Assembly (NCBI GenBank): GCA_012514225.1
Contig: JAAZAQ010000026.1
Location: 1-25,864 of the forward strand
From: Clostridiales bacterium
GTDB taxonomy: Bacteria > Bacillota > Clostridia > Christensenellales > Aristaeellaceae
DNA length: 25,864 bases
Direction: 5' to 3'
Shown piece by piece: positions 29-14,710 of the stretch. The first letter of the stretch is position 1, and every line of letters starts with the position of its first letter. The position numbers and the translations under genes are program-made. The notes beneath the pieces are model-generated. The model worked only from the letters and a program-made list of their open reading frames with translations, was not told the origin of the DNA and made no database searches.

Positions 29-769
29 TCAAATCATCGCGATTCCGCCGTTGACGTCCACGCACGCGCCGGTGATGTAGGACGCGTAGTCGCTCGCCAG
101 GAAGAGGCAGGCGCCGGCCACGTCGTCGCCGTTCCCGATGCGGCCGAGCGGGACCGAAGCGGGGTCGTACCCAAAGTCCCTGGTCATGTCCGTGGCAATC
201 AGGCCCGGTGAAACGGTGTTGACGCGGATTTGATGCTTTGCCCCTACTTTCGCCAGGCTTTTGCTCAGCGCCAGCACCGCCGCCTTCGAGGCGGGATAAT
301 CGGGCGAGACGACCAGACCGCCGGAGCGCGCCGCCTGGGACGACAGGTTGACGATGCAGCCGCCGCCCTGCCGCTGCATGGCGCGGAACGCCTCCCGGCA
401 CAGGAAGAACAGCCCTTTCACGTTGATGTCAAAGGTGAAATCCCACTGCTCCTCCGTCACTTCATACAGGCCGCCCAGGCGGGACACGCCGGCGCAGTTC
501 ACAAGGACGTCCAGCCGGCCCATCCCTTCCACCGCCGACTGGACGATTCGCTTCACGGTCGCCTCGTCCCGCAGGTCGCCCGCGATGGCCAGGGGCTCCA
601 GGCCCGTTTGCGAATGGATGTCCCGGGAGAGCGCCTTCAGGCTCTCTTCGCGCAGGTCGGTCACCGCCACGGCCCTGGCCTGGTGGCTTGAGAACATCCG
701 GGCGCAGGCCGCGCCGATTCCGCCCGCCGCGCCCGTAATCAGGACGGTTTTGCCCTCCAGCGTGAACAT
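29..769 (-). CDS. NAD-type short-chain dehydrogenase/reductase (SDR)
   Basis: Classical SDR of 246 residues, the usual family length. It has the Rossmann TGxxxGxG motif at residues 12-19 (TGAAGGIG), NCAG at 91-94, a catalytic serine around 143-144, and the YPASK motif giving Tyr158 and Lys162. Asp38 at the end of the second beta strand (VTDLR) argues for NAD(H) over NADP(H). It would interconvert a secondary alcohol and a ketone in the cytoplasm; the substrate cannot be read from sequence. It is the last gene of the operon in this window, starting 2 nt after the malic enzyme stop, so it is probably translationally coupled. In an acetoin-type operon an acetoin/diacetyl or butanediol dehydrogenase would fit. 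3-oxoacyl-ACP reductase (FabG) is the default alternative, but no fatty-acid genes are nearby. Confidence 0.9.
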   Translation of the reverse strand: MFTLEGKTVLITGAAGGIGAACARMFSSHQARAVAVTDLREESLKALSRDIHSQTGLEPLAIAGDLRDEATVKRIVQSAVEGMGRLDVLVNCAGVSRLGGLYEVTEEQWDFTFDINVKGLFFLCREAFRAMQRQGGGCIVNLSSQAARSGGLVVSPDYPASKAAVLALSKSLAKVGAKHQIRVNTVSPGLIATDMTRDFGYDPASVPLGRIGNGDDVAGACLFLASDYASYITGACVDVNGGIAMI

Positions 770-771
770 CG

Positions 772-1944
772 TTACACCCTGGCCACGCCGGAATCCCGGG
801 CGGCCTTGGCGACCGCCTGGCCGACCGCCTCGCCCAGCCCCGGGTCGAACGCGTTGGGCACGATGAAGGTGTCGCTCAGCTTGTCGCCCACGAAGTCCGC
901 GATGGCGTGCGCGGCGGCGATTTTCATTTCCTCGTTGATATCCGAGGCGCGCACGTCCAGGGCGCCGCGGAAGATGCCGGGGAAGGCCAGCACGTTGTTG
1001 ATCTGGTTGGGGAAGTCGCTGCGGCCGGTGCCGACGATAGCAGCGCCGGCTGCGAGGGCTTCCTCGGGGAAGATTTCAGGCGTCGGGTTGGCCATCGCCA
1101 GCACGATTGCGCCCTTGTTCATGCTCCTGACCATGTCGGCAGTGAACAGGCCGGGCCCGGACAAGCCAATCAGCACGTCCGCGCCCGCCGCCGCGTCGGC
1201 CATCGTGCCTTTCAGGCGGCGCTTGTTCGTGATGTTTGCAATGGCCAGCTTGGAGCTGTCCATCCCTTCCTGGCGCTCCGGGTGCAGGATACCCCTGCGG
1301 TCGCAAAGGATAACGTCGTCGACCTCCATGGACAAGAGGAGCTTCGTCACGGCCACGGCGGCCGCCCCGGCCCCGCTGACGGCCACCCGGATGCCGCGGA
1401 AATCCTTTTTGACCAGCTTGAGCGCGTTGATGACGCCCGCCAGCGTGACCACGGCAGTGCCGTGCTGGTCGTCATGGAAAATCGGGATGTCGCAGACCTC
1501 CTTGAGCCGGCGCTCGATTTCAAAGCACCGCGGGGCGGCGATATCCTCCAGGTTGACCCCGCCGAAGCTGCCGGCGATGAGGCGCACGACGTTGACGATT
1601 TCGTCCACGTCCTTGCTGCGGACGCACAGGGGGAAGGCGTCCACGTCGGCGAAGGACTTGAACAGCACGCATTTCCCCTCCATGACGGGCATGCCGGCTT
1701 CCGGCCCGATGTCGCCAAGTCCGAGCACCGCGGTCCCGTCGGTCACCACCAGCACGAGATTGCCCCGGCGCGTGTACTTGTAGGATAAATCGACGTTATC
1801 GCTGATTTCCAGGCAGGGGTTCGCGACGCCCGGCGTGTAGGCAACCGACAAGTCGTGCTGGTTCCGGACGGGCACCCGGCTGACGACTTCGATTTTGCCG
1901 CCCCAGCGCTCATGCATCTGCAGGGATTCCTGTTTGATGTCCAT
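772..1944 (-). CDS. NAD(P)-dependent malic enzyme (short, bacterial type)
   Basis: Oxidative decarboxylation of malate to pyruvate and CO2. The 390 residues match the short bacterial malic enzymes. Visible motifs are Tyr36 in the YTPGVA region, Lys91 in MEGKCVLFK, Glu133-Asp134 in NLEDI, Asp158 in HDDQHGT (metal site), and a Rossmann segment VAVSGAGAAAVA. I place the start at 1944 (MDIKQES) because AGAAGG (1952-1957) lies 7 nt upstream; an in-frame ATG at 1962 overlaps the previous gene and lacks that spacing. It follows the E3 gene by 14 nt. Its role may be to feed pyruvate to the adjacent dehydrogenase complex or to supply reducing power. The enzyme family is certain; its fit to the pathway is unclear. 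Confidence 0.93.
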   Translation of the reverse strand: MDIKQESLQMHERWGGKIEVVSRVPVRNQHDLSVAYTPGVANPCLEISDNVDLSYKYTRRGNLVLVVTDGTAVLGLGDIGPEAGMPVMEGKCVLFKSFADVDAFPLCVRSKDVDEIVNVVRLIAGSFGGVNLEDIAAPRCFEIERRLKEVCDIPIFHDDQHGTAVVTLAGVINALKLVKKDFRGIRVAVSGAGAAAVAVTKLLLSMEVDDVILCDRRGILHPERQEGMDSSKLAIANITNKRRLKGTMADAAAGADVLIGLSGPGLFTADMVRSMNKGAIVLAMANPTPEIFPEEALAAGAAIVGTGRSDFPNQINNVLAFPGIFRGALDVRASDINEEMKIAAAHAIADFVGDKLSDTFIVPNAFDPGLGEAVGQAVAKAARDSGVARV

Positions 1945-1958
1945 GCTTCGACCTTCTT

Positions 1959-3344
1959 TCAATACAATTTGTGAACGCTCAGACCCTCCAGGTCGTGAGC
2001 CGCCTCGAGGATGATTTCGCTGACGGAGGGGTGAGGGAAGATGGCCGACGCCAGCTCCTCATCCGTGGCCTCGGCGCGCATCGCGAGCGAAATCCCCGCG
2101 ATCAGCTCCGTCACGCCGGGCCCCGCGAGGTGCGCGCCCAGCAACTCGCCCGTGGCCGCTTCCGACAGGATTTTCGCCGTCCCGAGCGACTGGCCGTGAA
2201 TCATGCTCCTGCCGTTGGCAGAGACGGGGAATACGCCGGTACGGGCTTTCATTCCCCGGCCGCGCGCCTGTTCCTCCGTCAGCCCGATGGCGGCGATTTC
2301 CGGGGATGTGTATACGCAGACGGGGACCGCGTCGTAGCGCATCGCCGCCGGCTTGCCCGCCAGCGCGTCCGCCGCCGTCAGCCCCTGCGCGGTCGCCACG
2401 TGCGCCAGCTGCTGCTTCCCGGTGATATCGCCAATCGCGTAAATCCCCTTCACGTTCGTCCGCATCTGCTCGTCCGTGGGGATGTAGCCGGCCGCGTCCA
2501 CGCGCACGCCGGCCGTTTCCAGGCCGATGTCCCGGGTGTTGGGTTTCCGCCCGGTGGCAATCAGGACAAGTTCTGACAGCACGGTTTTTTCCTGGCCGTT
2601 TACAAGGTAGGCCGTGGAGACGGCCTGGTCCTTCCTTTCGAACCCCTGAACCCGGGCGCCGGTGATGATTTTGGCGTTCTGCCGCTGCATCGAGCGCGTC
2701 ACCGCCGCCACGGTGTCCGGGTCGAACCCGGCGAGCGCCTGCGGCAGCGCCTCCAGAACCGTCACAGGGATGTCCAGCTGCGAGAACAGGGTGGCGAACT
2801 CCATGCCGATGACGCCGGCGCCCACGATCGTTACGGAGGCGGGCGCGGCCGTCAGCGAAAGAAGGCCGTCGGAGTTCAGAATGCCCGGCAGATCCGCGCC
2901 GGGCAGCGGCAGCGCGGCCGGGCGCGAACCGGTCGCCAGGATGATGGAAGGCGCGGTATAAACCTCGCCCTGCGCGCGAACCTCATGGGGAGAGACCAGT
3001 TCCCCCCTCGCGGGAATCACGGTGACGCCCGCGCCCTTGAGGAGGGCGGCGACGCCGCCGCGCAGGCGGTCGACGATTTTGTCCTTCCGCGCGGCCGCCT
3101 TCTGGTAGTCGAACCGCAGGTTGTCGCAAAGAACGCCGGTTTCGGCGCCGTTCTTCGCGTGCTGGTACAGCGCGGACGCGTGCAGCAGGGCTTTTGTCGG
3201 GATGCATCCCCGGTTCAGGCAGACGCCGCCCACCTTGTCCTGCTCGATCAGCGCGACCCGGCTGCCCCTCCTGGCGGCGCGTATCGCCGCCGCGTATCCC
3301 CCCGGGCCGCCGCCCAGCACAATCAAGTCAAAGCTTTGCATCAT
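1959..3344 (-). CDS. lpdA: Dihydrolipoamide dehydrogenase (E3)
   Basis: Flavoprotein disulfide reductase of 461 residues that reoxidises the lipoyl group of E2 and passes electrons to NAD+. Residues 11-16 (GGGPGG) bind FAD. The redox pair is Cys42/Cys47 in GGVCLNRGCIPT. A second GxGxxG (VGAGVIG) binds NAD. ATGRKPN and AIGDITG are typical, and the C-terminal HPSVSE segment carries the His-Glu acid/base pair. There is no N-terminal lipoyl domain, so lipoylation rests on E2. A good AAGGAG lies 7 nt before the 3344 ATG. It is the fourth consecutive gene of one complex (E1alpha, E1beta, E2, E3), and the order matches acetoin and branched-chain dehydrogenase operons. Confidence 0.96.
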   Translation of the reverse strand: MMQSFDLIVLGGGPGGYAAAIRAARRGSRVALIEQDKVGGVCLNRGCIPTKALLHASALYQHAKNGAETGVLCDNLRFDYQKAAARKDKIVDRLRGGVAALLKGAGVTVIPARGELVSPHEVRAQGEVYTAPSIILATGSRPAALPLPGADLPGILNSDGLLSLTAAPASVTIVGAGVIGMEFATLFSQLDIPVTVLEALPQALAGFDPDTVAAVTRSMQRQNAKIITGARVQGFERKDQAVSTAYLVNGQEKTVLSELVLIATGRKPNTRDIGLETAGVRVDAAGYIPTDEQMRTNVKGIYAIGDITGKQQLAHVATAQGLTAADALAGKPAAMRYDAVPVCVYTSPEIAAIGLTEEQARGRGMKARTGVFPVSANGRSMIHGQSLGTAKILSEAATGELLGAHLAGPGVTELIAGISLAMRAEATDEELASAIFPHPSVSEIILEAAHDLEGLSVHKLY

Positions 3345-3383
3345 CGACCGGCTCCTTCCCAGGCTTTGTCGGTTATTGCCGCA

Positions 3384-4679
3384 TTACAGCAGCTTGTACG
3401 GGTTTTCGAGGTATTCCTTGACCCGGGCAAGGAACTGGGCCGCCGGCGCGCCGTCCACGAGGCGGTGGTCGTAGGAAAGGGTCAGTTTCATCACCGGATG
3501 GATTTCAACGCGGCCGTCGACCGCCACCGGCATGTCCGCGATCCGGCCGACGGCGAGGATGCCCGCCTCCGGCGGGTTGATGATGGCCTCAAACTCGTCC
3601 AGGCCGAACATCCCGAGGTTTGAGAGGGTGAACGTCCCTCCGGCGTATTCCTCCGGAAGCAGCTGCCCCTCGCGGGCCTTCCTGGCCAGCGCGGCGGCCT
3701 GTTCCGACAGCATATGAAGTGTCATCGATTCGGCGCCATGCACCACCGGCACGATCAGGCCGTCCTCCAGGGCAACGGCAATCCCGAGGTTCACGAAATT
3801 TTTCCGCCAGATTCCTTCGTCCGTCAGCTCGGCGTTCATCTGCGGGTAGTCCATCAGCGCGCGGACCGTCGCGAAGGCAATCAGGTCGTTGTAGCCGACG
3901 GACTTGTCAAGCGCTTCACGGGCTTCCCGCACCTTGTCCATCCGGACGCTGATGCGGTGGGACGCCTGCGCGGTGACGTCCAGGCTGGCTTTCATCCGGT
4001 CGGCGATAATCTTGCGCATGCCGCGCATCGGCTGGAGATCCCGCTCTCCCGCCGCTGGCGCGGGCTTGCGGGCGGCGGCATGGAGGACGTCCTGCCGGAC
4101 GACCTTCCCCCGCGCGCCTGTGCCGACGACCCCCTCCAGGGGGACGCCCGAAATGTCGGCCGTTTTCTTTGCCAGCGGCGTGGCACGGGGCGCAGCCGCG
4201 GCGGCCTGCAGGATATCCCGCTCGATGATGGTGCCGTCCGGCGCGCTTCCGGCAATGCTCTCATAGCCGACGCGAAGCTCCTCCGCCCGCATCCTTGCGC
4301 GGGGGGTGATGAACTTCCGCTGCCCCGGGGCGCCGGTCGCGCTGACCTGCTGCGCTTTTTCGGGAACAGGCTGGGGCGGGGGCGCGCCAGGGTCAGGGGC
4401 TTCGGGCGCCGCGTCCGCCAGCAGGGCGGACACGTCTTCGCCGGGCGCCCCGACAATCGCGATGGTTTCGGTGATGGGAACCGTCTCGCCCTCTTCCTTG
4501 ACGATTTTCAGCAGCGTGCCCGAGACCGGCGCGTCGATGGTGATGGTCAGCTTGTCCGTTTCCATTTTAAACAGCGGCTGTCCCTCGGTCACGGCCCCGC
4601 CTTCGGGAACGAGCCACTCCAGGATCGTGCCCTCCGTCATCTGGAGGCCCTGCTTGGGCATGATAATCCGCTCTGCCAT
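3384..4679 (-). CDS. acoC: Dihydrolipoyllysine acyltransferase (E2) with two subunit-binding domains
   Basis: Core acyltransferase of a 2-oxoacid/acetoin dehydrogenase complex, 431 residues. The lipoyl domain (about 1-78) carries the lipoylated Lys43 in METDKL. After a Pro/Ala-rich linker (about 85-118) come two peripheral subunit-binding modules, about 122-160 (ITPRARMRAEE, DGTIIERDIL) and 165-202 (ATPLAKKTAD, GARGKVVRQDVL). The catalytic domain starts near 212 and holds His405 and Asp409 in SYDHRLVDG. Most E2 chains have one binding module, so two is noteworthy. The ribosome binding site AGGAGG overlaps the E1beta stop codon. The acyl group (acetyl, or another) cannot be fixed from sequence; acetyl fits the acetoin-like E1. 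Confidence 0.93.
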   Translation of the reverse strand: MAERIIMPKQGLQMTEGTILEWLVPEGGAVTEGQPLFKMETDKLTITIDAPVSGTLLKIVKEEGETVPITETIAIVGAPGEDVSALLADAAPEAPDPGAPPPQPVPEKAQQVSATGAPGQRKFITPRARMRAEELRVGYESIAGSAPDGTIIERDILQAAAAAPRATPLAKKTADISGVPLEGVVGTGARGKVVRQDVLHAAARKPAPAAGERDLQPMRGMRKIIADRMKASLDVTAQASHRISVRMDKVREAREALDKSVGYNDLIAFATVRALMDYPQMNAELTDEGIWRKNFVNLGIAVALEDGLIVPVVHGAESMTLHMLSEQAAALARKAREGQLLPEEYAGGTFTLSNLGMFGLDEFEAIINPPEAGILAVGRIADMPVAVDGRVEIHPVMKLTLSYDHRLVDGAPAAQFLARVKEYLENPYKLL

Positions 4680-4688
4680 AAAAACCTC

Positions 4689-5672
4689 CTACATACGGTA
4701 CAGCACGGACTTCGCGGCCTCGACGATGTCCGCGACCTGGGGCACGACCGCGTTTTCCAGGCCCAGGTTGAAGGGGAGGGTGCACATTTTCGCGCCGACG
4801 CGCGCGGGTGGCGCGTCCAGGTACTTGAAGGCCTTTTCCGTCACCTGCGCGGCGATCTCCGTCCCGAAGCCCATCGTGCGGTGCGCTTCGTGCACCGTCA
4901 CCAGGCGGCCGGTTTTCCTGACCGACTCGACGATGGTGTCCGTGTCGAGGGGAACCAGCGTACGCGGGTCGATGACCTCGGCCGAAATCCCCTCTTTTTC
5001 AAGCAAATCAGCGGCTTCCAGCGCTTTTCCGAGGTAGAGGTAGTTCCCCACGATGGTGACGTCCTTGCCCTCGCGCACGACGTTGCTTTTGCCGAAGGGT
5101 ACGGAGAACTCCGGGTCGTCGGGCACCTCGCCCTTGGTCGCGTACAGCGCCTTGTGCTCGATGAACACGACCGGATTGTCGTCCCGGATGGCGGTCCGCA
5201 ACAGCCCCGCGGCGTCCGCCGGTGTGGACGGGCAGACGACTTTCAGGCCGGGAATGTGCATCAGCAGGGATTCCACCGACTGCGAATGCTGGCCGGCGTT
5301 GCCCCGGCCGATGCCTTGCTGGCCGCGCACGACAAGCGGCACCTTGACCTTGCCGCCGAACATGTAGCGCATCTTCGCGGCCTGGTTGAGAATCTGGTCC
5401 ATCGCCAGGTAGAGGAAATCCATGTACATCAATTCGACGACCGGGCGCATCCCGACGCTGGCCGCCCCCACGCCCGCCCCGACGAAGGTGTTTTCCGAAA
5501 TGGGCGTGTTGCGGACGCGCTTGTCGCCGAACTCCTGCAGGAGGTCGCGGGTGCATCCAAAGATGCCGCCCTGTTCCGCGATGTCCTCGCCCATCAGGAA
5601 GACGTTCTGGTCCCGGCGCATCTCCTGCGCGAGCACGTCACGGATTGCCACCGCATAGGTCTTGATACTCAT
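4689..5672 (-). CDS. acoB: Acetoin/2-oxoacid dehydrogenase E1 component, beta subunit
   Basis: Thiamine-diphosphate-dependent E1 beta subunit, 327 residues, the standard size. Features include the N-terminal YAVAIRDVLAQEM helix, Glu60 in the TPISE motif (the residue that activates ThDP in the family), GQHSQSVES near the active-site tunnel, and the C-terminal swivel domain with HEAHRTMGFG. It forms an alpha2beta2 E1 with the adjacent alpha subunit. The ATG overlaps the E1alpha stop by 4 nt (ATGA), which suggests coupled synthesis in equal amounts. Overall it resembles AcoB and PdhB; substrate choice between acetoin, pyruvate and a branched 2-oxoacid is not certain. Confidence 0.93.
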   Translation of the reverse strand: MSIKTYAVAIRDVLAQEMRRDQNVFLMGEDIAEQGGIFGCTRDLLQEFGDKRVRNTPISENTFVGAGVGAASVGMRPVVELMYMDFLYLAMDQILNQAAKMRYMFGGKVKVPLVVRGQQGIGRGNAGQHSQSVESLLMHIPGLKVVCPSTPADAAGLLRTAIRDDNPVVFIEHKALYATKGEVPDDPEFSVPFGKSNVVREGKDVTIVGNYLYLGKALEAADLLEKEGISAEVIDPRTLVPLDTDTIVESVRKTGRLVTVHEAHRTMGFGTEIAAQVTEKAFKYLDAPPARVGAKMCTLPFNLGLENAVVPQVADIVEAAKSVLYRM

Positions 5673-6661
5673 ATCGGATACGCCCCCTCCACATACATCC
5701 CGTCCATGACGTGCGCGGGATCCGGCTCGGGACTGTCCAGCGCGAACTGGGCCGCCTCCGCCACGTCTGCCGCCGCCTGCTCGTCAATCGCGTCAAGCTC
5801 TTCTTCCTTCGCAATCTTGTTCGACAGCAAGTATTCCCTGAACCGCTTGATGGGGCATTTCTCCATCCATGCGGCGACCTCCTCGCGCGTGCGGTATACC
5901 TCGGGGTCGCCTGTCCAATGGCCCTTCCAGCGGTAGGTTTTCGCCTCGATCAGCGAGGGGCCTTCCCCCGCCCTGGCGCGCGACAGCGCCTTTTCAAAAG
6001 CGTTGAGGATGGAAAAGACGTCGTTGCCGTCCACCACGTAGCCGGGCATGTCATAGGCCGACGCGCGCACGGCGATGTCCTTGACCGATGTGGACTGGCT
6101 GATGGGGACCGAAATCCCGAATCCGTTGTTTTCGCACACGAAAATCACCGGGAGCTTCCAGACGGACGCCAGGTTCATCGACTCGTGGAAAGTGCCCTGG
6201 TTGGAAGCGCCGTCGCTGAAGAAGGGGACGGTCACCCGGTCGGTGTTGCGCATCTTCTGCGCGAGCGCGCCGCCGACCGCGATGGGCAACCCGCCCCCCA
6301 CGATGGCGTTCGCGCCCAGGTTTCCCTTATCCAGGTCACAGATGTGCATCGAGCCGCCGCGCCCGTGGCAGAACCCGGTCTGTTTGCCCATCAGCTCCGC
6401 GAACGCGGACTTCAAATCCCGGCTCTTGGCGATGCCGTGCCCGTGCCCCCTGTGGGTCGACGTGATGTAATCGTCGTCGTCCAGCAGCTCGGTGACGGAC
6501 GCGCTGATGGCTTCCTGCCCGATGCACAGGTGCACGGAGCCGCGCAGCTTGTTCTCCTGGAAGAAACGGAACGCCGTTTCCTCAAACAGCCGGATTTGCT
6601 TCATAACCGTGTAAATGTTCAGAAGCGTTTCCCTGCTGTACTTCTTGTCCGGTTTCGTCAA
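5669..6661 (-). CDS. acoA: Acetoin/2-oxoacid dehydrogenase E1 component, alpha subunit
   Basis: E1 alpha subunit, 330 residues from a TTG start at 6661. That start has AAGGAG (6671-6676) 9 nt upstream and overlaps the sucD-like stop codon (TTGA). The frame is open further upstream, but those codons lie inside the preceding gene and look unrelated. The ThDP motif runs from 149 (SDG, where the family usually has GDG) to Asn178-Asn179. Segments STHRGHGHGIAKS, CHGRGGSMHICD and NLGANAIVGGGLPIAVGGA resemble acetoin dehydrogenase alpha subunits more than pyruvate dehydrogenases, judged from memory of the families. It would cleave acetoin, or decarboxylate a 2-oxoacid, and pass the acyl group to the lipoyl arm of E2. 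Confidence 0.9.
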   Translation of the reverse strand: MTKPDKKYSRETLLNIYTVMKQIRLFEETAFRFFQENKLRGSVHLCIGQEAISASVTELLDDDDYITSTHRGHGHGIAKSRDLKSAFAELMGKQTGFCHGRGGSMHICDLDKGNLGANAIVGGGLPIAVGGALAQKMRNTDRVTVPFFSDGASNQGTFHESMNLASVWKLPVIFVCENNGFGISVPISQSTSVKDIAVRASAYDMPGYVVDGNDVFSILNAFEKALSRARAGEGPSLIEAKTYRWKGHWTGDPEVYRTREEVAAWMEKCPIKRFREYLLSNKIAKEEELDAIDEQAAADVAEAAQFALDSPEPDPAHVMDGMYVEGAYPI

Positions 6662-7542
6662 TGCTTCTCCCTCCTTATCAGTTCCTGTACCAGTTCCACC
6701 ACGTGTTCGGTGCTCTGCGCGATGTGGCATCCCGCTTCGCGCAGCGCCTTTTCCTTGTTCTGGGCGCTTCCCGTGCCGTCGGCGGCGACGATGGCGCCCG
6801 CGTGCCCCATGCTGGTGCCCTTCGGGGCGTTCTTGCCGGCAATCAGCGCGACGACGGGCTTTGTAACATGCGCCTGGATATACTCCGCCGCGCGCTCCTC
6901 CGCGCTGCCCCCGATTTCGCCGATGATGACGATGACTTCCGTTTGCTCGTCCCGCTGGAAATCCGGGAGCATTTCCACGAAGCTGGTTCCCGGAATCATG
7001 TCCCCGCCGATGCCGATGCAGGTGGACTGCCCGATGCCGCGCTGGGACAGCATGAAGACCGTCTCGTAACAGTTCGTCGCGCTGCGGCTCATCAGCCCGA
7101 CGGGACCCGGTGTAAAGATGCTGTGCGCCATAAAGCCGACTTTCGATTTGCCGGGGGAAATGATGCCGAAGGAATTCGGGCCGAACAGCCTGACGCCCTT
7201 CTCACGCGCGAGCATGCGGCAAAGCATCATGTCCTGGACGGGGGTGTGCTCGGCCAGGGTGACGATGAGCGGGATGCCGGCGTCGATGGCTTCCATCGCG
7301 CTGGCCTTCAGATGCTGCGCGGGCACGAACAGCACGCTCGCGTTCGCGCCGGTTGCCTCCACCGCTTCCCTGACGGTGTTGAACACCGGTACGCCCAGCG
7401 CGCGCTGCCCGCCCTTCCCGGGCGTGACGCCCGCGACGACGTTCGTGCCGTAGGCCAGCATCTGCTCGGTATGGAACGTACCCTCACGGCCCGTAATTCC
7501 CTGAACAATCAGCCTTGTCTGCGTGCCGACCAGAATGCTCAT
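6658..7542 (-). CDS. sucD: ADP-forming acyl-CoA ligase alpha subunit, SucD-like
   Basis: Homologue of succinyl-CoA synthetase alpha, 294 residues, with the phosphohistidine His247 in MGHAGAI and CoA-binding N-terminal segments (GITGREGTFHT, TPGKGG). The two-subunit enzyme makes ATP while releasing a carboxylic acid from its CoA ester. Several positions conserved in ordinary SucD differ here: GPNSFG for GPNCPG, SRSATNCYE for SRSGTLTYE, GGDMIPG for GGDPIPG, and KGTSMGHAGA for KGKRMGHAGA. This suggests an acyl group other than succinyl. The ATG overlaps the sucC stop by 4 nt, and the stop overlaps the E1alpha TTG. With an acylating aldehyde dehydrogenase first in the operon, the substrate is probably the acyl-CoA that enzyme produces. 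Confidence 0.92.
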   Translation of the reverse strand: MSILVGTQTRLIVQGITGREGTFHTEQMLAYGTNVVAGVTPGKGGQRALGVPVFNTVREAVEATGANASVLFVPAQHLKASAMEAIDAGIPLIVTLAEHTPVQDMMLCRMLAREKGVRLFGPNSFGIISPGKSKVGFMAHSIFTPGPVGLMSRSATNCYETVFMLSQRGIGQSTCIGIGGDMIPGTSFVEMLPDFQRDEQTEVIVIIGEIGGSAEERAAEYIQAHVTKPVVALIAGKNAPKGTSMGHAGAIVAADGTGSAQNKEKALREAGCHIAQSTEHVVELVQELIRREKH

Positions 7543-8711
7543 TTTGCATCCCTCCTTCCCGCGGATGCGGAAAGCATCTCGGAAACGATGCGGACCCCTT
7601 CCACAATCCCCCCCGCGCTGACTGCCTGCGGCGTCCTCCCGATGATTTCCTGGCCCACCTCCTTGTTGGTGCCTTCCATGCGCACGACGACCTTGCTGCC
7701 GCCCGAACCCTCTTCCAGGGCCAGCCGGACGCCCTCCGCGACCTCGTCGCAGCGCGTGATCCCGCCGAAGATGCAGATGAACAGGGTGTCCACGCCCGGC
7801 GTCGAAAGGACGATGCGCACCGCTTCCCGGATGCGGTCCTTGGTCGCCCCGCCGCCCAGGTCCAGCGCGCAGGCGACGGAAATCTCCTTCTTCGACAGCA
7901 AGTCGATCATGCTCATCAGCATGCCGGAGCCGTTGGACATGACCGCGACGCGGCCCTCCGCGCCCACGGGGATGTACAAAAAGCGGAACGCGCGCGCCTG
8001 TGTGACAAGCGGCGGCTCCGAATGCGCCTCGCGCATCGCCAGCAGATCCGCGTGCCGCTGCAGGGCGGAATCGTCGACGTCGATTTTGCCGTCGACGGCC
8101 GCCAATGTGCCGTCCTTCCCGACCGCCACCGGATTGATTTCCGCCAGCAGGCAATCCCGCTGTGTAAACAGCCGGTACAGGCCGCAAAGCAGGTTTTTCA
8201 GCGCGGGGAGGTGCTCCCCGCCGATGCCGGACTTGGAGACAAGGTACTGGACCGTGTAATCCGCGACGCCGACCAGGGGATTTACGGGAACCTTCAGGAT
8301 GGCGCCCGGGTTCTCCCGCGCGGTTTCCTCGATATCCACCCCGCCGCAAGGCGAGAAGATCACCATCGGCATGCCGGCGTCCCGGTCAAGGAGGATCGAC
8401 AGATACCATTCCGCGGCCATCTCGACCTTCTCGACCACCAGCAGCTGGCGGACCTGGATTCCCTTCAGGCTGGAAAAGAGCAGCGCGCCGACGATTTCGG
8501 CCAACTCCTCCGGGTTTTGCGCAAAGCGGACGCCGCCTGCCTTGCCGCGACCGCCGACCTGCACCTGCGCCTTGACGACGACAGGGTAATCGAGGCCTGC
8601 CGCCGCGACCGCTTCCGCCGCGCCTTCCCCGGACGAGAGCACGACGCCCTTCGGCGTGGCAAGCCCGTATTGGTCAAACAGCTCCTTTGCCTGGTATTCC
8701 AGCAGTTTCAC
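7539..8711 (-). CDS. sucC: ADP-forming acyl-CoA ligase beta subunit, SucC-like
   Basis: ATP-grasp subunit of 390 residues, colinear with succinyl-CoA synthetase beta. It has the N-terminal LEYQAKELFDQYG, the grasp motif VVVKAQVQVGGRGKAGGV, the INPVAV and DGKIDVDDSAL metal-binding segments, LDLGGGATKDR, and FGGITRCDEVAEG near the acyl site. The E. coli VNGAGLAM stretch is replaced by SNGSGMLM, again hinting at a different acyl substrate. The start is a GTG at 8711, 4 nt after the aldehyde dehydrogenase stop, behind a G-rich Shine-Dalgarno region. It works with the SucD-like subunit downstream. Confidence 0.92.
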   Translation of the reverse strand: MKLLEYQAKELFDQYGLATPKGVVLSSGEGAAEAVAAAGLDYPVVVKAQVQVGGRGKAGGVRFAQNPEELAEIVGALLFSSLKGIQVRQLLVVEKVEMAAEWYLSILLDRDAGMPMVIFSPCGGVDIEETARENPGAILKVPVNPLVGVADYTVQYLVSKSGIGGEHLPALKNLLCGLYRLFTQRDCLLAEINPVAVGKDGTLAAVDGKIDVDDSALQRHADLLAMREAHSEPPLVTQARAFRFLYIPVGAEGRVAVMSNGSGMLMSMIDLLSKKEISVACALDLGGGATKDRIREAVRIVLSTPGVDTLFICIFGGITRCDEVAEGVRLALEEGSGGSKVVVRMEGTNKEVGQEIIGRTPQAVSAGGIVEGVRIVSEMLSASAGRRDAK

Positions 8712-8715
8712 CCGC

Positions 8716-10065
8716 TCACCCCCAAATCTCGTCGTCGCTGGGCTGGTGCCAGCCCGGCTTGACCGTCGCGACGTGCGTTACGTTGAACAGATGCGTATAG
8801 AACAGGTTCTCGGAAATCGAGTTGTTCCCCCAGCTTCCGCACCCGAGCGTGGTGGTGGGGCTCAAGCCGTTGGTGAACGCGCCGCCGTTCTGCGTCGCGC
8901 AGACCTGGTTGACCAGGACGCGGCATACCGGCAGCGTCCTGCCCGCGTAGTCCAAATGCTGCGCGTTGTTGGAGTGAATCGAGACGCTGTGCCCCATCCC
9001 TTCGACGGACAGGTTGTCGATGGCGATTTTGACGGCTTCTTCCCATGTGTCATACGCGTAGGCGCTCATGACGGGGAACATCTTCTCCTTGCTCCAGACG
9101 CAGCCCGCCCCGGCATGGTCGGGTTTCACGATGATAAGCCGGGTGCCATCCGGAACGCTGACGCCCGCCAGTTCCGCCACCTTCAGCGCGCCCTGGCCGA
9201 TGGCGTCGCGGTGGATGACACCGCCCGGGAACAGCTTCTCGCCCATCGAGCGGACGAGCGCCGGGTCGTCGACGTAGTACGCGCCGTTCTCCTTGAACGC
9301 GGCGATGACCTCGTCAAACGTATCCTTCGGCGCGATGATGGTCTGTTCGCCGGAACAGATGATTCCATTGTCGAAAACCCGCCCGTCGACCGCCTTCTTG
9401 GCCGCGTCGCGGACGTCGATGCCCCGGTCGAAGATGCACTGCACGTTGCCCGCCCCGACGCCAAAACTGGGCTTTCCGCTGGAATAGGCGGACTTCACCA
9501 TCGCCATGCCGCCGGTCGCGATGACCACGTCGCAGGCGGACATCAGCTCGTTGGTCAGCGGGATGCTGGGCTCGGGAATCGTCTGGTACGCGTCTTCCGG
9601 CGCGCCGTGCTCCTTCAGGATCGCCCGGAACGCCTCGTTGAGGCGCATGGCGCACTTCTTCGCGCGGGGGTGCGGCGAAACGATGATCGCGTTTCCGCCC
9701 TTGAACGCGAACATCGCGTTGCACATGGGCGTGACAATCGGGTTGGTGCAGGGGGTGACGGCGGCCACGACGCCCATCGGCTTCGCCACTTCGGTGATGC
9801 CCTGCTCCGGGATGACCCGCAGCACGCCGACGGATTTCTTTCCCTTCAGCGCGTGCCAGATAATCCTGGCTTTGCCCTTGTTTTTCAGGACCTTGTGCTC
9901 GTAGGTTCCCATCCTCGTTTCTTCAGCCGCCATTTTCGCCAGCGGTTCCGCCTGGTCATAGACATACTTGGCGATGCTTCGGACGATGCCGTCGATGCGC
10001 TCCTGGTCATACCCGGCGAGCACCTGCTGCGCCGCGCGCGCTTTTGATACATACTCTGCAATCAT
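8716..10065 (-). CDS. CoA-acylating aldehyde dehydrogenase
   Basis: Aldehyde + CoA + NAD(P)+ to acyl-CoA, 449 residues. Catalytic Cys237 is in FDNGIICSGEQ. The signature SPHPRAKK (130-137), VTPCTNPIVTP (104-113) and the nucleotide-binding GVGAGNV (202-208) place it with AdhE N-terminal/EutE-type, CoA-acylating succinate-semialdehyde and sulfoacetaldehyde dehydrogenases, not with hydrolytic ALDHs. I choose the ATG at 10065 (MIAEYVSK) because AGGAG (10073-10077) is 7 nt upstream; the frame is open to 10116, but this extension lies in the promoter region. It is the first gene of the operon, divergent from the GntR regulator. Acetaldehyde and sulfoacetaldehyde are both plausible substrates. Confidence 0.93.
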   Translation of the reverse strand: MIAEYVSKARAAQQVLAGYDQERIDGIVRSIAKYVYDQAEPLAKMAAEETRMGTYEHKVLKNKGKARIIWHALKGKKSVGVLRVIPEQGITEVAKPMGVVAAVTPCTNPIVTPMCNAMFAFKGGNAIIVSPHPRAKKCAMRLNEAFRAILKEHGAPEDAYQTIPEPSIPLTNELMSACDVVIATGGMAMVKSAYSSGKPSFGVGAGNVQCIFDRGIDVRDAAKKAVDGRVFDNGIICSGEQTIIAPKDTFDEVIAAFKENGAYYVDDPALVRSMGEKLFPGGVIHRDAIGQGALKVAELAGVSVPDGTRLIIVKPDHAGAGCVWSKEKMFPVMSAYAYDTWEEAVKIAIDNLSVEGMGHSVSIHSNNAQHLDYAGRTLPVCRVLVNQVCATQNGGAFTNGLSPTTTLGCGSWGNNSISENLFYTHLFNVTHVATVKPGWHQPSDDEIWG

Positions 10066-10132: not shown

Positions 10133-10230
10133 ATGAATTGAGAGATTATCGGCGGTATTATTATCAAACCTGCGGCGCTTGCCCAAGCCGTTTCTACAAA
10201 GGCGGACCCGCGCGCCAAAAGGGGGACACA

Positions 10231-10929
10231 TTGTTCAGGGTGCTTCCGCACAAGCAAATCTACGAGGAAATCATCGAGGAAATCGGCAGCCGGATCCGTT
10301 CGGGCGAGTTGCCCGTGGGGGCGAAGCTGCCGCCAGAGCGCGTGCTGGCGGAACAACTGGGCGTCGGCCGGACATCGCTGCGGGAAGCGCTGCGCGCGAT
10401 GAAACGGATGGGGTGCATCCGCTCGGTGGTGGGAGACGGCAACTACGTCGACCGCGTGCTGCCCGGCCACGTCGCCCTGCCGCTGTCCATGATGCTCAGC
10501 CAGGGAAACGCGCTTGCCGCGGACGTCATCCAGGTGCGGCAGTACCTGGAGGTCCATATGGCGTCGATGGCGGCGGCCAGCGCGACGGAAGACCAACTCC
10601 GGAGCATCCGCGAAGCCATCGAAGAGATGGAAAGCCAGATCCGGGAGGGCGGCAACGGCGTCGAGGGGGACAACCGCTTTCACCTCGAAATCGCGAAGGC
10701 TTCCCAGAACAAGGCGTTCAGCATTATCGTGGAACTGCTCGCGGAACTGCTGGCGGAATCGCGCAAGGCGACCTTGAGCATCCCGGGGCAGCCGGTCAAG
10801 AGCGTCGAGGACCACCTGAGAATCTACGCGGCCATCCAGTCCGGCGACGCGGCGGCCGCGGAAGCCGCGATGGCCGACCACCTGATGAAAGCGCACCAGA
10901 TCCTCGTGGATTCGGATACCGGAAACTGA
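10231..10929 (+). CDS. GntR-family (FadR/FCD) transcriptional regulator
   Basis: DNA-binding regulator of 232 residues. The N-terminal winged helix (about 6-73) contains GAKLPPERVLAEQLGVGRTSLREALRAM, the GntR recognition region. The C-terminal helical FCD domain has Asp147, His151, His195 and His217, the family metal/ligand-binding set, so it likely senses a small acid or related metabolite. The start is TTG at 10231 with AAAAGGGGG just upstream. The frame is open back to 10138, but that lies at the predicted transcription start and gives an unrelated, odd sequence. It is divergent from the catabolic operon and convergent with the transporter operon, and is the likely local repressor or activator of both. 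Confidence 0.92.
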   Translation: MFRVLPHKQIYEEIIEEIGSRIRSGELPVGAKLPPERVLAEQLGVGRTSLREALRAMKRMGCIRSVVGDGNYVDRVLPGHVALPLSMMLSQGNALAADVIQVRQYLEVHMASMAAASATEDQLRSIREAIEEMESQIREGGNGVEGDNRFHLEIAKASQNKAFSIIVELLAELLAESRKATLSIPGQPVKSVEDHLRIYAAIQSGDAAAAEAAMADHLMKAHQILVDSDTGN

Positions 10930-11679: not shown

Positions 11680-11688
11680 AACAATCTC

Positions 11689-12489: not shown

Positions 12490-12528
12490 CTGGATTCCTT
12501 TCATCAACCTTGTTGCCGTCAAACGGGC

Positions 12529-12561
12529 GGCGGCGCCCGGCGTATGCTGCCGGACGCCGCC
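12529..12561 (-). promoter_or_regulatory. Strong intercistronic hairpin after the binding-protein gene
   Basis: A 13-bp GC-rich stem (12529-12541 with 12549-12561, one G-U pair) with a 7-nt loop. On the minus strand only a short CGTTTGA follows, so it is probably an attenuator or 3'-end protector, not a full terminator. It lies between the abundant-product gene (binding protein) and the enzyme genes, a usual place to set unequal expression. Confidence 0.65.
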
Positions 12562-12592
12562 AGGGTCAGTCTATTGCTGTCTGTCAGTCAGA

Positions 12593-13624
12593 TCAGAACA
12601 GCGCCGCATACTCCTCGATGTTGGTGATGTCATAGAGCATCGGGTCAACCAGCGACAGGATCTGGCCGTTCTCCAGGATGGTGTACTCGCCCAGCTTCCC
12701 AGCGGAGAAGGTCGCGCCGGGTTCGGTCTTGAAGCCGCCCTTCACCGCCGTGGCGAGGTAGACAGCGAGGTAGCCCTCGTATGGCGGGTTCCACAGTTGG
12801 AAGCCCAGGCAGGTCCCGTCCATAACGAATTCCTTCATCTCGGAAGGGAGGCCAAGGCCGGTCACGCGGATTTTTTCCGCCAGGCCCCGGGTCTGGACCA
12901 CCTTGCAGGCCGCCGCGATGCCGACCGTGGTCGGGGCGATGACGCCCTTCAGGTTCGGGTACTTCGTGATGAGCGCTTCCATCTCGATGGTGGATTTCTC
13001 CGGCTGGTCGTCCCCGTAGACGACTTCGACGAGCGTCATCTTCGAGTAGGCTTCGTCGTTCGCCAGCACTTCCTTCATCAGCTCAATCCAGGTGTTCTGG
13101 TCGGGCGCGTCGGTGGTGGCGGACAGGATGGCGAACTCGCCCTCATAGCCGATCTGCTCCGCCATCAGCTTGATCTGCGCCTTGCCGATGGTGCTGAAGT
13201 CCACGGGCATGATGGCCGCGTCGCGGTGGCTCTCGCTGCCGGGGATGTCCTGGTTGATGAGGTAGATCGGCACGCCCGCGTCGCGCGCGTCGTCAAAGGT
13301 GCCGTTGAGCGCATCGTTGGAGTTCGCCGCGATAAAGATCGCGTCCGCGTCGTTCTGCACGGCCGCTTCGACGTACTCGATCTGGCTGGTGGCCTCCGCG
13401 GTGGCCGGGCCGGTGAAGATGTACTCGTACTTGTCTTCGCCAAGCTCCGCGATGGCGTCCTTGAACCCGGAGCTCAAGGCTTCGAAGTACGGGTTGCCGA
13501 GGTTCTTCGGGATGAAGTAGATCTTGATCTTGCCCTCCTCGGCGGACACGGTCGCGACCAGCCCGCAGCAGGTTACGAGCATCAGCGCAGCCAGCGCAAT
13601 CGCCAGGATACGGTTCCTCTTCAT
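12593..13624 (-). CDS. ABC-importer substrate-binding protein, rhamnose/AI-2 (RhaS/LsrB-like) type
   Basis: Extracytoplasmic type I periplasmic-binding-protein fold, 343 residues. The signal peptide (1-28) has a basic start MKRNR, a hydrophobic core and a likely signal peptidase I site VSA|EEG. The two cysteines at 19-20 are not in a good lipobox, which is unusual for a Gram-positive binding protein. The segments KNLGNPYFEALSSGFKDA and AVQNDADAIFIAANSNDAL resemble rhamnose- and autoinducer-2-binding proteins more than ribose RbsB. A strong GGGAGG site precedes the ATG. The ligand is probably a small polyhydroxy or keto compound; it cannot be named. Confidence 0.88.
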   Translation of the reverse strand: MKRNRILAIALAALMLVTCCGLVATVSAEEGKIKIYFIPKNLGNPYFEALSSGFKDAIAELGEDKYEYIFTGPATAEATSQIEYVEAAVQNDADAIFIAANSNDALNGTFDDARDAGVPIYLINQDIPGSESHRDAAIMPVDFSTIGKAQIKLMAEQIGYEGEFAILSATTDAPDQNTWIELMKEVLANDEAYSKMTLVEVVYGDDQPEKSTIEMEALITKYPNLKGVIAPTTVGIAAACKVVQTRGLAEKIRVTGLGLPSEMKEFVMDGTCLGFQLWNPPYEGYLAVYLATAVKGGFKTEPGATFSAGKLGEYTILENGQILSLVDPMLYDITNIEEYAALF

Positions 13625-13657
13625 GCTTTTCCTCCCTTTCAGGTTTGTTTATTACTC

Positions 13658-13672
13658 ACCGGACCAGCCGGT
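13658..13672 (-). repeat. Short palindrome upstream of the binding-protein gene
   Basis: ACCGG, ACCAG, CCGGT: perfect 5-bp arms in the 87-nt gap between the second permease gene and the binding-protein gene. It could form a small hairpin that protects the binding-protein message. The signal is weak. Confidence 0.35.
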
Positions 13673-13711: not shown

Positions 13712-14710
13712 TCAGCGGTCCCTGAAGCCCTGGACCAGCTTGCCGATGTTGGGAATAATGATCGAAAGCAACAAAATCAACCCCATCATGAACATCTGCG
13801 CGTCGGACGTGACGTTGGCGACAATCAGCCCGGTTTTCAATACGATGACGAGCAGAACCGCGATGAACGTGCCGATAATGCTCCCGTTTCCCCCGCTAAT
13901 TTCCGCGCCGCCCAGCAGCACCATCGCCACCACGTCAATTTCGGAGTTCAGGTTCATATCATACCGCACCAGGAGCAGCCGAGACATCGTCAGCAGGCCG
14001 GCGATTCCCGAAACGAACCCGGAGAGCAGAAACAGCTGCAGTTTGACCCGCCGCGTATTGACGGAGCTGAAAATCGCCGCCTGCTCGTTGGCCCCCACGG
14101 CAAGCACCTTGCGGCCAAAGCCGGTTTTGTGCAGGACCAGGTAAAAGGCAAAGGCGAGGAGGATAAAGGCCAGAATCGTGACGCCGAAGCGCGCCTTCCC
14201 GATCATGAAAACGGGGATCTTCTCGATGCTGTTGAACCATTCAGGGAATTTCCCCAGGCTCTTGTCGCCGATGAAAATCTGCGAAATCCCGCGGAACACG
14301 CTCATCGTGCCGATGGTCACGATCATCGAGGGCAGGTTCAGGTACGCGATCAAAAGCCCGTTGACGGCGCCGCAGGCCAGGCCGGTCAACAGCCCCAGCG
14401 GAATGGCCGCCTCCATGGGCAATCCGGCGTGAAAGGCCAGCGCGGCGACCGTCGCCGAGCAGCACATGGTCGCGGGGACGGAAAGGTCGATCATGCCCGC
14501 AGACACGATCAGCGTCATCGTCAGCGCCGTCATCCCCAGTTCCATGTAGCGGGTCGTGGTCCTTAAAAGATACGCGAGGTCGCGGAAACTCTCGGAAAGA
14601 GACGCGCTCACGATGAGCGTGGCGAGCAGCAATCCGAAGGGAACCCACTCCCGCCTTGAGAACACCGCGCTCAATTTGCCCCGTTTGGAGCGCCCGTCCA
14701 ACCCCTTCAC
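13712..14710 (-). CDS. ABC-importer permease (ribose/rhamnose type), second
   Basis: Inner-membrane permease of 332 residues (RbsC/BPD_transp_2 family) with about eight to ten hydrophobic helices. The conserved cytoplasmic loop SMIVTIGTMSVFRGISQIFIG and the later AEISGGNGSIIGTFIAVLLV are typical. It starts at GTG 14710, overlapping the stop of the first permease by 4 nt (GTGA) behind an AAGGAGG. The frame is open further upstream, but that part is the other permease's coding region. It pairs with the first permease as a heterodimer, as in rhamnose and AI-2 importers, unlike the homodimeric RbsC. Confidence 0.92.
   Translation of the reverse strand: MKGLDGRSKRGKLSAVFSRREWVPFGLLLATLIVSASLSESFRDLAYLLRTTTRYMELGMTALTMTLIVSAGMIDLSVPATMCCSATVAALAFHAGLPMEAAIPLGLLTGLACGAVNGLLIAYLNLPSMIVTIGTMSVFRGISQIFIGDKSLGKFPEWFNSIEKIPVFMIGKARFGVTILAFILLAFAFYLVLHKTGFGRKVLAVGANEQAAIFSSVNTRRVKLQLFLLSGFVSGIAGLLTMSRLLLVRYDMNLNSEIDVVAMVLLGGAEISGGNGSIIGTFIAVLLVIVLKTGLIVANVTSDAQMFMMGLILLLSIIIPNIGKLVQGFRDR

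What the first reader, a model, noticed from the sequence alone, without database searches (positions are those of the whole stretch)
29..10065. Nine-gene operon joining acetoin-type dehydrogenase complex, acylating aldehyde dehydrogenase and ATP-yielding CoA ligase
Seen: gene order ALDH, SucC-like, SucD-like, E1alpha, E1beta, E2, E3, malic enzyme, SDR, with 4-nt overlaps or very short gaps. Model A (acetoin): E1-E3 splits acetoin to acetyl-CoA and acetaldehyde, ALDH converts acetaldehyde to acetyl-CoA, the ligase releases acetate with ATP, and the SDR interconverts the diol or diketone. Model B: the complex splits an acetoin analogue bearing an acidic group (for example a sulfonate) into acetyl-CoA and an acidic aldehyde, and ALDH plus ligase convert it to the acid and ATP. 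From memory, a variant sulfoglycolytic pathway uses an acylating sulfoacetaldehyde dehydrogenase plus an ADP-forming sulfoacetate-CoA ligase. I know of no described pathway with this whole set. The malic enzyme is unexplained in both models.
Basis: partly seen in the sequence, partly recalled or inferred. Interest (0 to 1): 0.8.

Follow-up and report, generated by a model that had tools for sequence, protein, structure and literature searches.

The report
Likely sugar-to-malate pathway gene cluster
A bacterium carries sixteen neighbouring genes that together look like a pathway that takes up a deoxy sugar, cuts it with an enzyme complex usually linked to acetoin or pyruvate, and earns ATP by turning the other half into malate; relatives share the core, but the exact sugar and the reactions are untested.

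Summary
The nine-gene operon is real and is a conserved unit: of 16 loci with ALDH next to sucC, window included, E1-alpha follows sucD in 12 of the 14 whose contig reaches that far. The ALDH resembles succinyl-CoA reductase and keeps both residues (Lys70, Ser243) that bind the substrate's far carboxylate, so the aldehyde is probably an acid, not acetaldehyde. Malate is the best candidate product: malic enzyme is in the cluster in four loci, and all five LarA homologues found in sister clusters pass the malate racemase cut-off. The system extends beyond the given coordinates: a rhamnose-like ABC importer, a second SDR and a cyclase-family hydrolase (11023-17252) are conserved with it in one other genome and share an operator-like palindrome. 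Best reading: a deoxyhexose is oxidised to a keto-acid, E1-E3 cuts it into acetyl-CoA and malic semialdehyde, and ALDH plus the SucCD-like ligase give malate and ATP. An ordinary pyruvate dehydrogenase role for E1-E3 is not excluded. Acetoin and sulfonate are disfavoured. No substrate was tested.

The parts
29..769 (-). SDR1, classical short-chain dehydrogenase; proposed to oxidise the secondary alcohol that gives the alpha-ketol (or, in the rival, an alcohol acid)
   Evidence: Pfam adh_short_C2 7.7e-58; 238 NCBIfam families match, best generic FabG/glucose dehydrogenase types at 212 bits, meso-2,3-butanediol dehydrogenase 179 < 270 cut-off; 64% in L022, 47% in L099
772..1944 (-). Malic enzyme (small bacterial type)
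   Evidence: PF00390 and PF03949 over cut-off; PDB 5cee 442 bits; motifs YTPGVA and DDQHGTA
1959..3344 (-). E3 dihydrolipoyl dehydrogenase
   Evidence: TIGR01350 513 > 408.8; CLNRGC and HPSVSE motifs
3384..4679 (-). E2 dihydrolipoamide acyltransferase, one lipoyl domain
   Evidence: PF00198, PF00364, PF02817; METDK lipoyl site and DHRLVDG
4689..5672 (-). E1-beta (ThDP enzyme, pyrimidine-binding subunit)
   Evidence: PF02779/PF02780; module clade 99/98
5669..6661 (-). E1-alpha (ThDP-binding subunit), TTG start overlapping sucD; loop signature GHWTGDP
   Evidence: PF00676; TIGR03182 366.1 < 393.85; loop signature
6658..7542 (-). SucD-like alpha subunit of ADP-forming acyl-CoA ligase (GHAGA motif)
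   Evidence: TIGR01019 384.6 > 353.2; GHAGA
7539..8711 (-). SucC-like ATP-grasp beta subunit
   Evidence: PF08442; TIGR01016 361.4, just below 375.55
8716..10065 (-). CoA-acylating aldehyde dehydrogenase of the succinyl-CoA reductase type with acid-binding Lys70/Ser243 equivalents
   Evidence: PDB 8cei 496.9 bits, next 307.1; alignment; residue check
10154..10170 (.). Operator-like palindrome GGT-N11-ACC in the ALDH/GntR intergenic region
10231..10929 (+). GntR/FCD-family regulator, divergent from the operon (TTG start chosen by comparison with L022; the longest ORF starts at 10138)
   Evidence: PF00392, PF07729; 58% in L022
11023..11679 (-). Cyclase-family metal hydrolase (proposed lactonase), HxGTHxD motif
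   Evidence: PF04199 4.8e-32; HQGTHMDAARH; 62% in L071
11689..12486 (-). SDR2 (proposed sugar C1 dehydrogenase)
   Evidence: PF13561; 79% in L071; 73-79% relatives named Treponema, Lachnospiraceae and Bacteroidales families
12593..13624 (-). Rhamnose-type (RhaS-like) substrate-binding protein
   Evidence: PDB 4kvf 232 bits and 5bq3 217 bits, next 164; TIGR02637 302.8 < 342.25; 8 of the 12 plasmid hits listed are annotated rhaS
13712..14710 (-). CUT2-type ABC permease 1
   Evidence: PF02653 (run on the longer ORF 13712-14887)
14707..15837 (-). CUT2-type ABC permease 2 (its start lies within the end of the ATPase gene in the longest reading)
   Evidence: PF02653
15735..17252 (-). CUT2-type sugar ABC ATPase
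   Evidence: PF00005, two stretches; 70% in L022
17432..17448 (.). Second copy of the operator-like palindrome, upstream of the ABC-SDR2-cyclase operon

Best explanation
A GntR-controlled, kinase-free catabolic pathway for a deoxyhexose. Inferred steps: (1) a rhamnose-type ABC importer brings in the sugar; (2) SDR2 oxidises C1 to a lactone and the cyclase-family hydrolase opens it to the aldonate; (3) SDR1 oxidises the C5 alcohol, giving an acetoin-like alpha-ketol CH3-CO-CHOH-R; (4) the E1-E2-E3 complex works as an oxidative ketolase, splitting it into acetyl-CoA and a four-carbon acid aldehyde; (5) the acid-specific acylating ALDH and the SucCD-like ligase turn that aldehyde into the diacid, best malate, with NADH and ATP; (6) malic enzyme takes malate to pyruvate. 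Carbon balance: C6 = acetyl (C2) + malate (C4), which fits a 2,6- or 3,6-dideoxyhexose. Shown by sequence: gene content, conservation, the acid pocket, the malate-linked partner genes, the shared operator-like site. Inferred: every reaction, the order of steps, the regulation and the identity of the sugar.
For: ALDH: best solved relative is C. kluyveri succinyl-CoA reductase 8CEI, 497 bits, next 307. Lys70 and Ser243, which hold the distal carboxylate (PMC10249356, passages), are kept in 16 of 16 ALDHs from loci with sucC beside ALDH, window included, while L009, L010 and L014 have Ala at both. Malate: malic enzyme lies in the cluster in window, L052, L099 and L100; 5 of 5 LarA homologues found in sister clusters (L072, L073, L076, L113, L114) score 548.9-595.1 on malate racemase NF052593, cut-off 500, and the L073 one is nearest Mar2 6d6z, 395.6 bits, next 209.6; genome G085 has both genes. 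E1-E3 as the cutter: the genes shared by window and L022/L071 (ABC, SDR1, SDR2, cyclase, core, GntR) include no kinase, dehydratase or aldolase, so E1-E3 is the only sugar-cutting enzyme among them. SDR genes (40-42% to SDR1) precede E1 in the sister E1 clade, L162 in the own genome and L074. The own genome has PFOR at 1806 bits, cut-off 911, so a pyruvate dehydrogenase is not required. Deoxyhexose: RhaS-like binding protein and a RhaM mutarotase gene in the L022 cluster (L071). One regulon: a palindrome read off L022 and L071 finds exactly two sites in the window at up to 2 mismatches, one in each operon's promoter region; 1 of 100 shuffles had as many.
Against: E1-alpha and E1-beta have their closest solved relatives among pyruvate dehydrogenases, and no authenticated acetoin dehydrogenase sequence was available to compare. 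Malic enzyme beside a pyruvate-using complex also fits a plain pyruvate dehydrogenase. The binding protein falls below the RhaS cut-off (302.8 against 342.25), and RhaM was seen in one locus only. The L022/L071 stretch has neither malic enzyme nor racemase (that genome has a malic enzyme on another contig). Upstream of the L022 unit, beyond GntR, lie genes that by eye look like glycerol, phosphofructo- and glycerate kinases, so kinase-free holds only for the shared genes. Sister clusters carry ribokinase-like kinase and DeoC genes that this scheme does not use. L114 lacks E1 beside sucD, but another, distant E1-E3 set lies about 8 kb away, so its lack there says little. A plain 6-deoxyhexose such as rhamnose would give tartrate, not malate. 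No dideoxyhexose source is shown. The operator pattern was chosen after I had seen the regions.
Confidence: 0.42

Rival explanations
1. E1-E3 is an ordinary pyruvate dehydrogenase. A C4 compound (for example 2,4- or 3,4-dihydroxybutyrate or its lactone or aldose) is oxidised by the SDRs to malic semialdehyde; ALDH and SucCD make malate and ATP; malic enzyme makes pyruvate; E1-E3 makes acetyl-CoA.
For: Uses all nine genes in one line; nearest solved E1 relatives are pyruvate dehydrogenases; E1-beta passes subfamily model NF006667, 395.7 > 321; no C6 cutting enzyme is then needed; G150, the genome of L022, has no PFOR over the cut-off.
Against: PFOR is present over cut-off in the own genome and in 8 of 9 genomes checked; of the 12 loci with E1-alpha after sucD, malic enzyme was seen in 3 (window, L099, L100), some others being on short contigs; sugar-type (RhaS-like) importer; E1-alpha is below the PDH equivalog cut-off, 366.1 < 393.85. 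The loop GHWTGDP is in all 14 module-clade E1-alpha listed, with Trp where, as I recall, human PDH has Ser; two paralogues outside the clade (L162, L168) also have Trp there, so this is weak.
Confidence: 0.27
2. The same alpha-ketol scheme on a plain 6-deoxyhexose (rhamnose or fucose type): C4 product is tartrate semialdehyde, giving tartrate plus ATP; malic enzyme and racemase are side partners or act on tartrate.
For: RhaS-like binding protein, RhaM in L071; rhamnose is common. A malate racemase of this superfamily also epimerises tartrate, more slowly (PMC11770544, passages).
Against: Malic enzyme with canonical motifs and racemases passing the malate equivalog cut-off point to malate. I did not search for tartrate dehydratase.
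Confidence: 0.13
3. One reading: acetoin or 2,3-butanediol catabolism with ALDH oxidising acetaldehyde and the ligase releasing acetate.
For: Acetoin-type E1-E2-E3 layout plus an SDR with a butanediol-dehydrogenase hit below cut-off, 179 < 270; one 75% E1-alpha relative bears the source name acetoin:2,6-dichlorophenolindophenol oxidoreductase (P0079).
Against: Acid-binding residues in ALDH, malate partner genes, sugar importer. No evidence that SucCD acts on acetate.
Confidence: 0.07
4. One reading: an acetoin-like sulfonate is split and sulfoacetaldehyde is oxidised to sulfoacetate plus ATP.
For: ALDH plus ADP-forming ligase pairs exist for sulfoacetaldehyde (SqwD/SqwKL, SauS/SauCD; PMC12890257, passages); the putative SqwD in L057 (row L008) also has Lys and Ser at the two positions.
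Against: Window ALDH is 39% identical to the L057 one but 52-62% to enzymes in loci with 4-hydroxybutyrate-type genes; SauS model 400.7 < 600, though the L057 protein also misses it, 536.2; no glycosidase or separate transketolase among the 18 window proteins run through Pfam; malic enzyme has no role.
Confidence: 0.04

Closest known systems
Acetoin dehydrogenase complex (AcoABCL) with butanediol dehydrogenase (recalled)
   Same: E1-alpha, E1-beta, E2, E3 operon layout and an SDR; proposed reaction type (alpha-ketol to acyl-CoA plus aldehyde)
   Different: Acid-type ALDH, ADP-forming ligase, malic enzyme and sugar importer; substrate untested; acoX and acoR were not looked for
Sulfo-TK variant: SqwD (acylating sulfoacetaldehyde dehydrogenase) plus SqwKL (ADP-forming ligase)
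   Same: Acylating ALDH plus ADP-forming ligase; aldehyde with an acid group turned into acid plus ATP after a cut by a ThDP enzyme (PMC12890257, passages)
   Different: Transketolase instead of E1-E3; sulfonate; the ALDH of the putative SqwD cluster L057 is 39% identical
Clostridium kluyveri succinyl-CoA reductase SucD
   Same: ALDH family and acid-binding Lys and Ser (497 bits)
   Different: Works reductively toward 4-hydroxybutyrate there (PMC10249356, passages); here with a ligase and E1-E3
LarAH6 nickel malate racemase plus malic enzyme
   Same: Both kinds of gene occur in clusters of this module
   Different: No racemase in the window itself
Sinorhizobium plasmid cluster: ABC importer, sugar kinase, oxidoreductase, E1-E3, class II aldolase (L151); similar in Agrobacterium without the aldolase (L152)
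   Same: E1-E3 complex inside a sugar-type gene cluster (50-52% E1-alpha)
   Different: No ALDH or SucCD annotated in the stretch; sugar kinase present

Membership tests
Pyruvate dehydrogenase complex | E1-alpha passes PDH equivalog model (TIGR03182 cut-off 393.85) | tested here: not met
   366.1 bits
Pyruvate dehydrogenase complex | E1-beta passes subfamily model NF006667 (cut-off 321) | tested here: met
   395.7 bits; subfamily level only
Acetoin dehydrogenase complex | E1-alpha, E1-beta, E2, E3 encoded together | tested here: met
Acetoin dehydrogenase complex | E1 cleaves acetoin | not testable with these tools
   no assay; no authenticated AcoA/AcoB sequence was compared
Succinyl-CoA reductase type ALDH (acid acyl-CoA) | Lys70 and Ser243 equivalents | tested here: met
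   residue roles from PMC10249356
Succinyl-CoA reductase type ALDH (acid acyl-CoA) | 4-hydroxybutyrate genes beside it | tested here: not met
   none among the 18 window proteins run through Pfam; such genes (by eye) in loci of related ALDHs, e.g. L109, L023, L105
Acylating sulfoacetaldehyde dehydrogenase (SauS/SqwD) | NF047625 cut-off 600 | tested here: not met
   400.7; the putative SqwD in L057 also misses it, 536.2
ADP-forming succinate-CoA ligase | alpha subunit TIGR01019 cut-off 353.2 | tested here: met
   384.6
ADP-forming succinate-CoA ligase | beta subunit TIGR01016 cut-off 375.55 | tested here: not met
   361.4, slightly below
Malate-CoA ligase (MtkAB) | beta subunit NF010647 cut-off 604 | tested here: not met
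   247.3
Malic enzyme | both Pfam domains and signature motifs | tested here: met
Malate racemase (sister clusters) | NF052593 cut-off 500 | tested here: met
   5 of 5 LarA homologues found: 548.9, 578.6, 595.1, 581.3, 593.5
Rhamnose ABC importer | TIGR02637 RhaS cut-off 342.25 | tested here: not met
   302.8; nearest solved proteins are annotated rhamnose-binding
Rhamnose ABC importer | binds rhamnose | not testable with these tools
   no binding assay

The most novel reading that the evidence does not exclude
A kinase-free and aldolase-free sugar pathway in which an acetoin/pyruvate-dehydrogenase-type complex acts as an oxidative ketolase on a keto-dideoxyhexonate, yielding acetyl-CoA plus malic semialdehyde, with ATP formed by a SucCD-like malate-CoA ligase; sister modules with other front ends use the same E1 clade on other sugars and a malate racemase when D-malate is formed.
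Probability: 0.33. Interest if true: 0.8.

Novelty: new variant of a known kind. Interest (0 to 1): 0.6.

Why it matters
If right, it gives a function to a family of acetoin-type E1-E2-E3 complexes that sit in sugar-type gene clusters of the window's class (and, judging from protein hits, of Treponema): cutting sugar acids oxidatively instead of by aldolase. It would add an ATP-forming route from an acid aldehyde to malate, the carboxylate counterpart of the sulfoacetaldehyde route, and a possible way to degrade dideoxy sugars. My one search on dideoxyhexose catabolism returned 3 papers (listing only), none with such a pathway in what was shown.

Tried and rejected
Acetoin/acetaldehyde and sulfonate models: disfavoured by ALDH residues, ALDH branch and malate genes. 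Caballeronia plasmid ALDH: alone between an integrase and a transposase, no context. Enterococcus gilvus ALDH: beside a phosphate acyltransferase and butyrate kinase, another system. SDR2, cyclase and binding protein against plasmids: only relatives under 60% identity; I did not read their surroundings; 8 of 12 listed binding-protein hits are annotated rhaS. SDR1 in PDB: mostly FabG-type and other SDR hits, no clear substrate hint. Carnitine: malic semialdehyde is known in print as an intermediate of L-carnitine breakdown (28 papers hold one of the two terms, 20 listed, abstract starts only); that needs a monooxygenase, and none is among the 18 window proteins run through Pfam. Literature: 0 papers; 3; 3; 3; 12, mostly chemistry; 1; titles and abstract starts only, none describing this gene set. 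Most subscription journals are missing from the library, so this does not show that the pathway is unpublished. An operator was sought in the 173 loci held: four carry it, one a copy of part of the window (L001) and three from the L022 genome (L022, L071, L154). The degenerate form used was tuned on the sites; the pattern was read from L022 and L071, but after I had seen the window regions. A malic enzyme tree with only three rows is uninformative. The window proteins at 19046-24427 were not run through a family library (one search failed). Structure prediction was not used. DeoC, ribokinase-like kinase, cupin and UlaG-like genes of sister clusters remain unexplained.

Full report
Observation. 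The window lies in G000, a 1.93 Mb, 401-contig genome, 89% complete. Nine intact - strand ORFs in the stated order were found and assigned with Pfam and NCBIfam. Junctions are three 4-base overlaps and gaps of 2 to 39 bases. A GntR/FCD gene diverges from ALDH. Beyond the stated coordinates, 11023-17252 codes for a cyclase-family hydrolase, SDR2 and a CUT2-type ABC importer.

Conservation. ALDH relatives of any context at E <= 1e-145 were found in 11 of 396 genomes of the order, 13 of 391 of the class and 2 of 398 of the phylum; each tally includes the own genome. A family search at 1e-60 gave 47 of 150 genomes (48 places); six places, the own included, are at 55% identity or more, and 34 of the other 42 lie in frames over 700 aa, the size of AdhE. 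The six same-genus genomes listed had no match. The genome-contig scan gave 28 ALDH loci, of which one (L022, a Lachnospiraceae MAG) has sucC beside ALDH. The neighbourhoods mapped give, with the window, 16 loci with ALDH beside sucC: window, L022, L052, L054, L055, L056, L095, L099, L100, L102, L108, L110, L111, L112, L113, L114, each from a different genome. (For L100 and L102 some of these genes were labelled only.) In L052 and L095 the contig stops too early to judge. In the other 14, E1-alpha follows sucD in 12; the exceptions are L055 (next ORF unrelated; its genome G040 has only distant E1-alpha matches) and L114 (racemase and alcohol dehydrogenase there, with another E1-E3 set about 8 kb away). 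In G010 the core is split: E1-E3, racemase and sucCD on one contig (L072, L171), ALDH on another (L053). L099, from another family of the order, has SDR, malic enzyme, ALDH, sucC, sucD, E1-alpha, E1-beta and E2 with a divergent GntR gene: nearly the window's set in another order (its contig ends before any E3). Of 13 sucC-less ALDH loci of 50-62% identity mapped, 7 hold matches to 4-hydroxybutyrate dehydrogenase- and 4-hydroxybutyryl-CoA dehydratase-like genes (L023, L025, L040, L101, L105, L116, L159); the two queries came from an eighth, L109, and were named by eye, not by a family library.

E1 clade. In a 23-row E1-beta tree, 12 rows from the loci above (L073 standing for G085) plus L072 (G010) and L163 (a second E1 of G240) form one group of 14, 99/98 support, needing one change. 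One E1-beta row (L168, 7841) was dropped before this tree as a distant outlier. L163, which has no ALDH-sucCD beside it, was put in the group after I had seen a quick tree, so the grouping is partly post hoc. All 14 E1-alpha of this clade listed have GHWTGDP in one loop; none of the 7 listed paralogues has it, though L162 and L168 share the Trp. That the human enzyme has Ser at the Trp position is recalled, not from a call.

ALDH. The nearest solved protein is C. kluyveri SucD. PMC10249356 (passages) says that Lys70 and Ser243 coordinate the distal carboxylate and that PduP has Leu and Val there. 16 of 16 ALDHs with sucC beside them have Lys and Ser; so do, or nearly do (Lys with Ser or Thr), most of the sucC-less relatives; L009, L010 and L014 have Ala and Ala; L008 (putative SqwD) has Lys and Ser, so these residues say acid group, not which acid.

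Malate. Malic enzyme is in the cluster in window, L052, L099 and L100. LarA homologues lie in L072, L073, L076, L113 and L114; all five pass the malate racemase LarAH6 cut-off. [quoted passage not shown] G085 has both, on two contigs (L052, L073). In L022's genome malic enzyme exists on another contig. So malate is the most economical product of ALDH plus SucCD. NCBIfam does not settle the ligase: its alpha subunit passes the succinate model, its beta subunit lies just below the succinate cut-off and far below the malate one.

Front end. In L022/L071 the order is GntR / ALDH-sucC-sucD-E1a-E1b-E2-E3-SDR1-ATPase-permease-permease-SDR2-cyclase-RhaM-SBP. E1-beta (83%) and SDR2 (79%) are the most alike proteins between the two. 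Further upstream in L022, beyond GntR, are genes that by eye look like glycerol, phosphofructo- and glycerate kinases. The binding protein is nearest to proteins annotated rhamnose-binding but below the RhaS cut-off. The palindrome GGTNNATTAATANNACC, read from L022 and L071, has in the window two sites at up to 2 mismatches, 10154-10170 (2 mismatches) and 17432-17448 (none); mean 0.05 in 100 shuffles, one shuffle with two. In L022 one site was found, where 38 of 100 shuffles also had at least one; in L071 one exact site and two with 2 mismatches. The L022 genome's sites are in front of ALDH/GntR and in front of RhaM, not in front of the ATPase gene.

Spread. The protein searches (best 120 listed of 7923, best 120 of 276, and 48) name Treponema among relatives of E1-alpha (80-82%), SDR2 (73-76%) and ALDH (64-66%).

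What E1-E3 does. For a ketolase: no other sugar-cutting enzyme is among the genes shared by the two matching clusters; SDR genes precede E1 in the sister clade (L162, L074); 5 of 7 further E1 loci of G240 (L163, L165, L167, L168, L169) and the two rhizobial loci read hold sugar-type ABC transporter genes; PFOR is over its cut-off in 8 of 9 genomes, own included, though not in G150. For pyruvate dehydrogenase: nearest solved relatives and malic enzyme.

Sulfonate check. L057 in the same family has ALDH-sucC-sucD, a DASS-type transporter, a GH31 enzyme passing NF007746 (871 > 553) and, by eye, a transketolase-like gene; that this GH31 type is the sulfoquinovosidase YihQ is recalled. In outline it matches the known sulfo-TK variant (PMC12890257, passages), and its ALDH is only 39% identical to the window's.

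Limits. No assay, no authenticated acetoin dehydrogenase reference, many contigs short, genomes unnamed, gene names in relatives partly by eye, and the sugar is an inference from transporter type, carbon balance and malate.

Noticed in passing
G000:C260 (L162:1-3573): The same genome has a second SDR, E1-alpha, E1-beta set (42%, 50%, 61% to the window's), on a short contig.
   Followed up: partly
L163-L169 (genome G240): One genome carries eight E1-alpha places over 250 bits; 5 of the 7 loci fetched hold sugar-type ABC transporter genes, some with kinases, aldolase or dehydrogenases, suggesting a family of sugar-linked E1-E3 complexes.
   Followed up: partly
L057: A likely sulfoquinovose sulfo-TK variant cluster (ALDH, sucCD, DASS transporter, GH31 passing NF007746, transketolase-like gene by eye) in a genome of the window's family.
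   Followed up: partly
L054, L072, L073, L110, L112: Sister modules with DeoC aldolase and, in most, a ribokinase-like PfkB kinase; the genomes of L054, L072 and L073 also have malate racemase, and L054 and L072 a UlaG-like hydrolase and a cupin; their substrate is unclear.
   Followed up: partly
L151, L152 (Sinorhizobium and Agrobacterium plasmids): Rhizobial clusters with sugar ABC importer, sugar kinase, an oxidoreductase and E1-E3 (one followed by class II aldolase, one by lipoyl synthase); I do not know which pathway they serve.
   Followed up: no
P0134-P0192: SDR2 is 73-79% identical to proteins named for Bacteroidales families, in another phylum, which suggests transfer between lineages.
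   Followed up: no
L072:17497-18867 and L053:13622-14725: Transaldolase/fructose-6-phosphate aldolase-like proteins near sucC or ALDH, role unknown.
   Followed up: no
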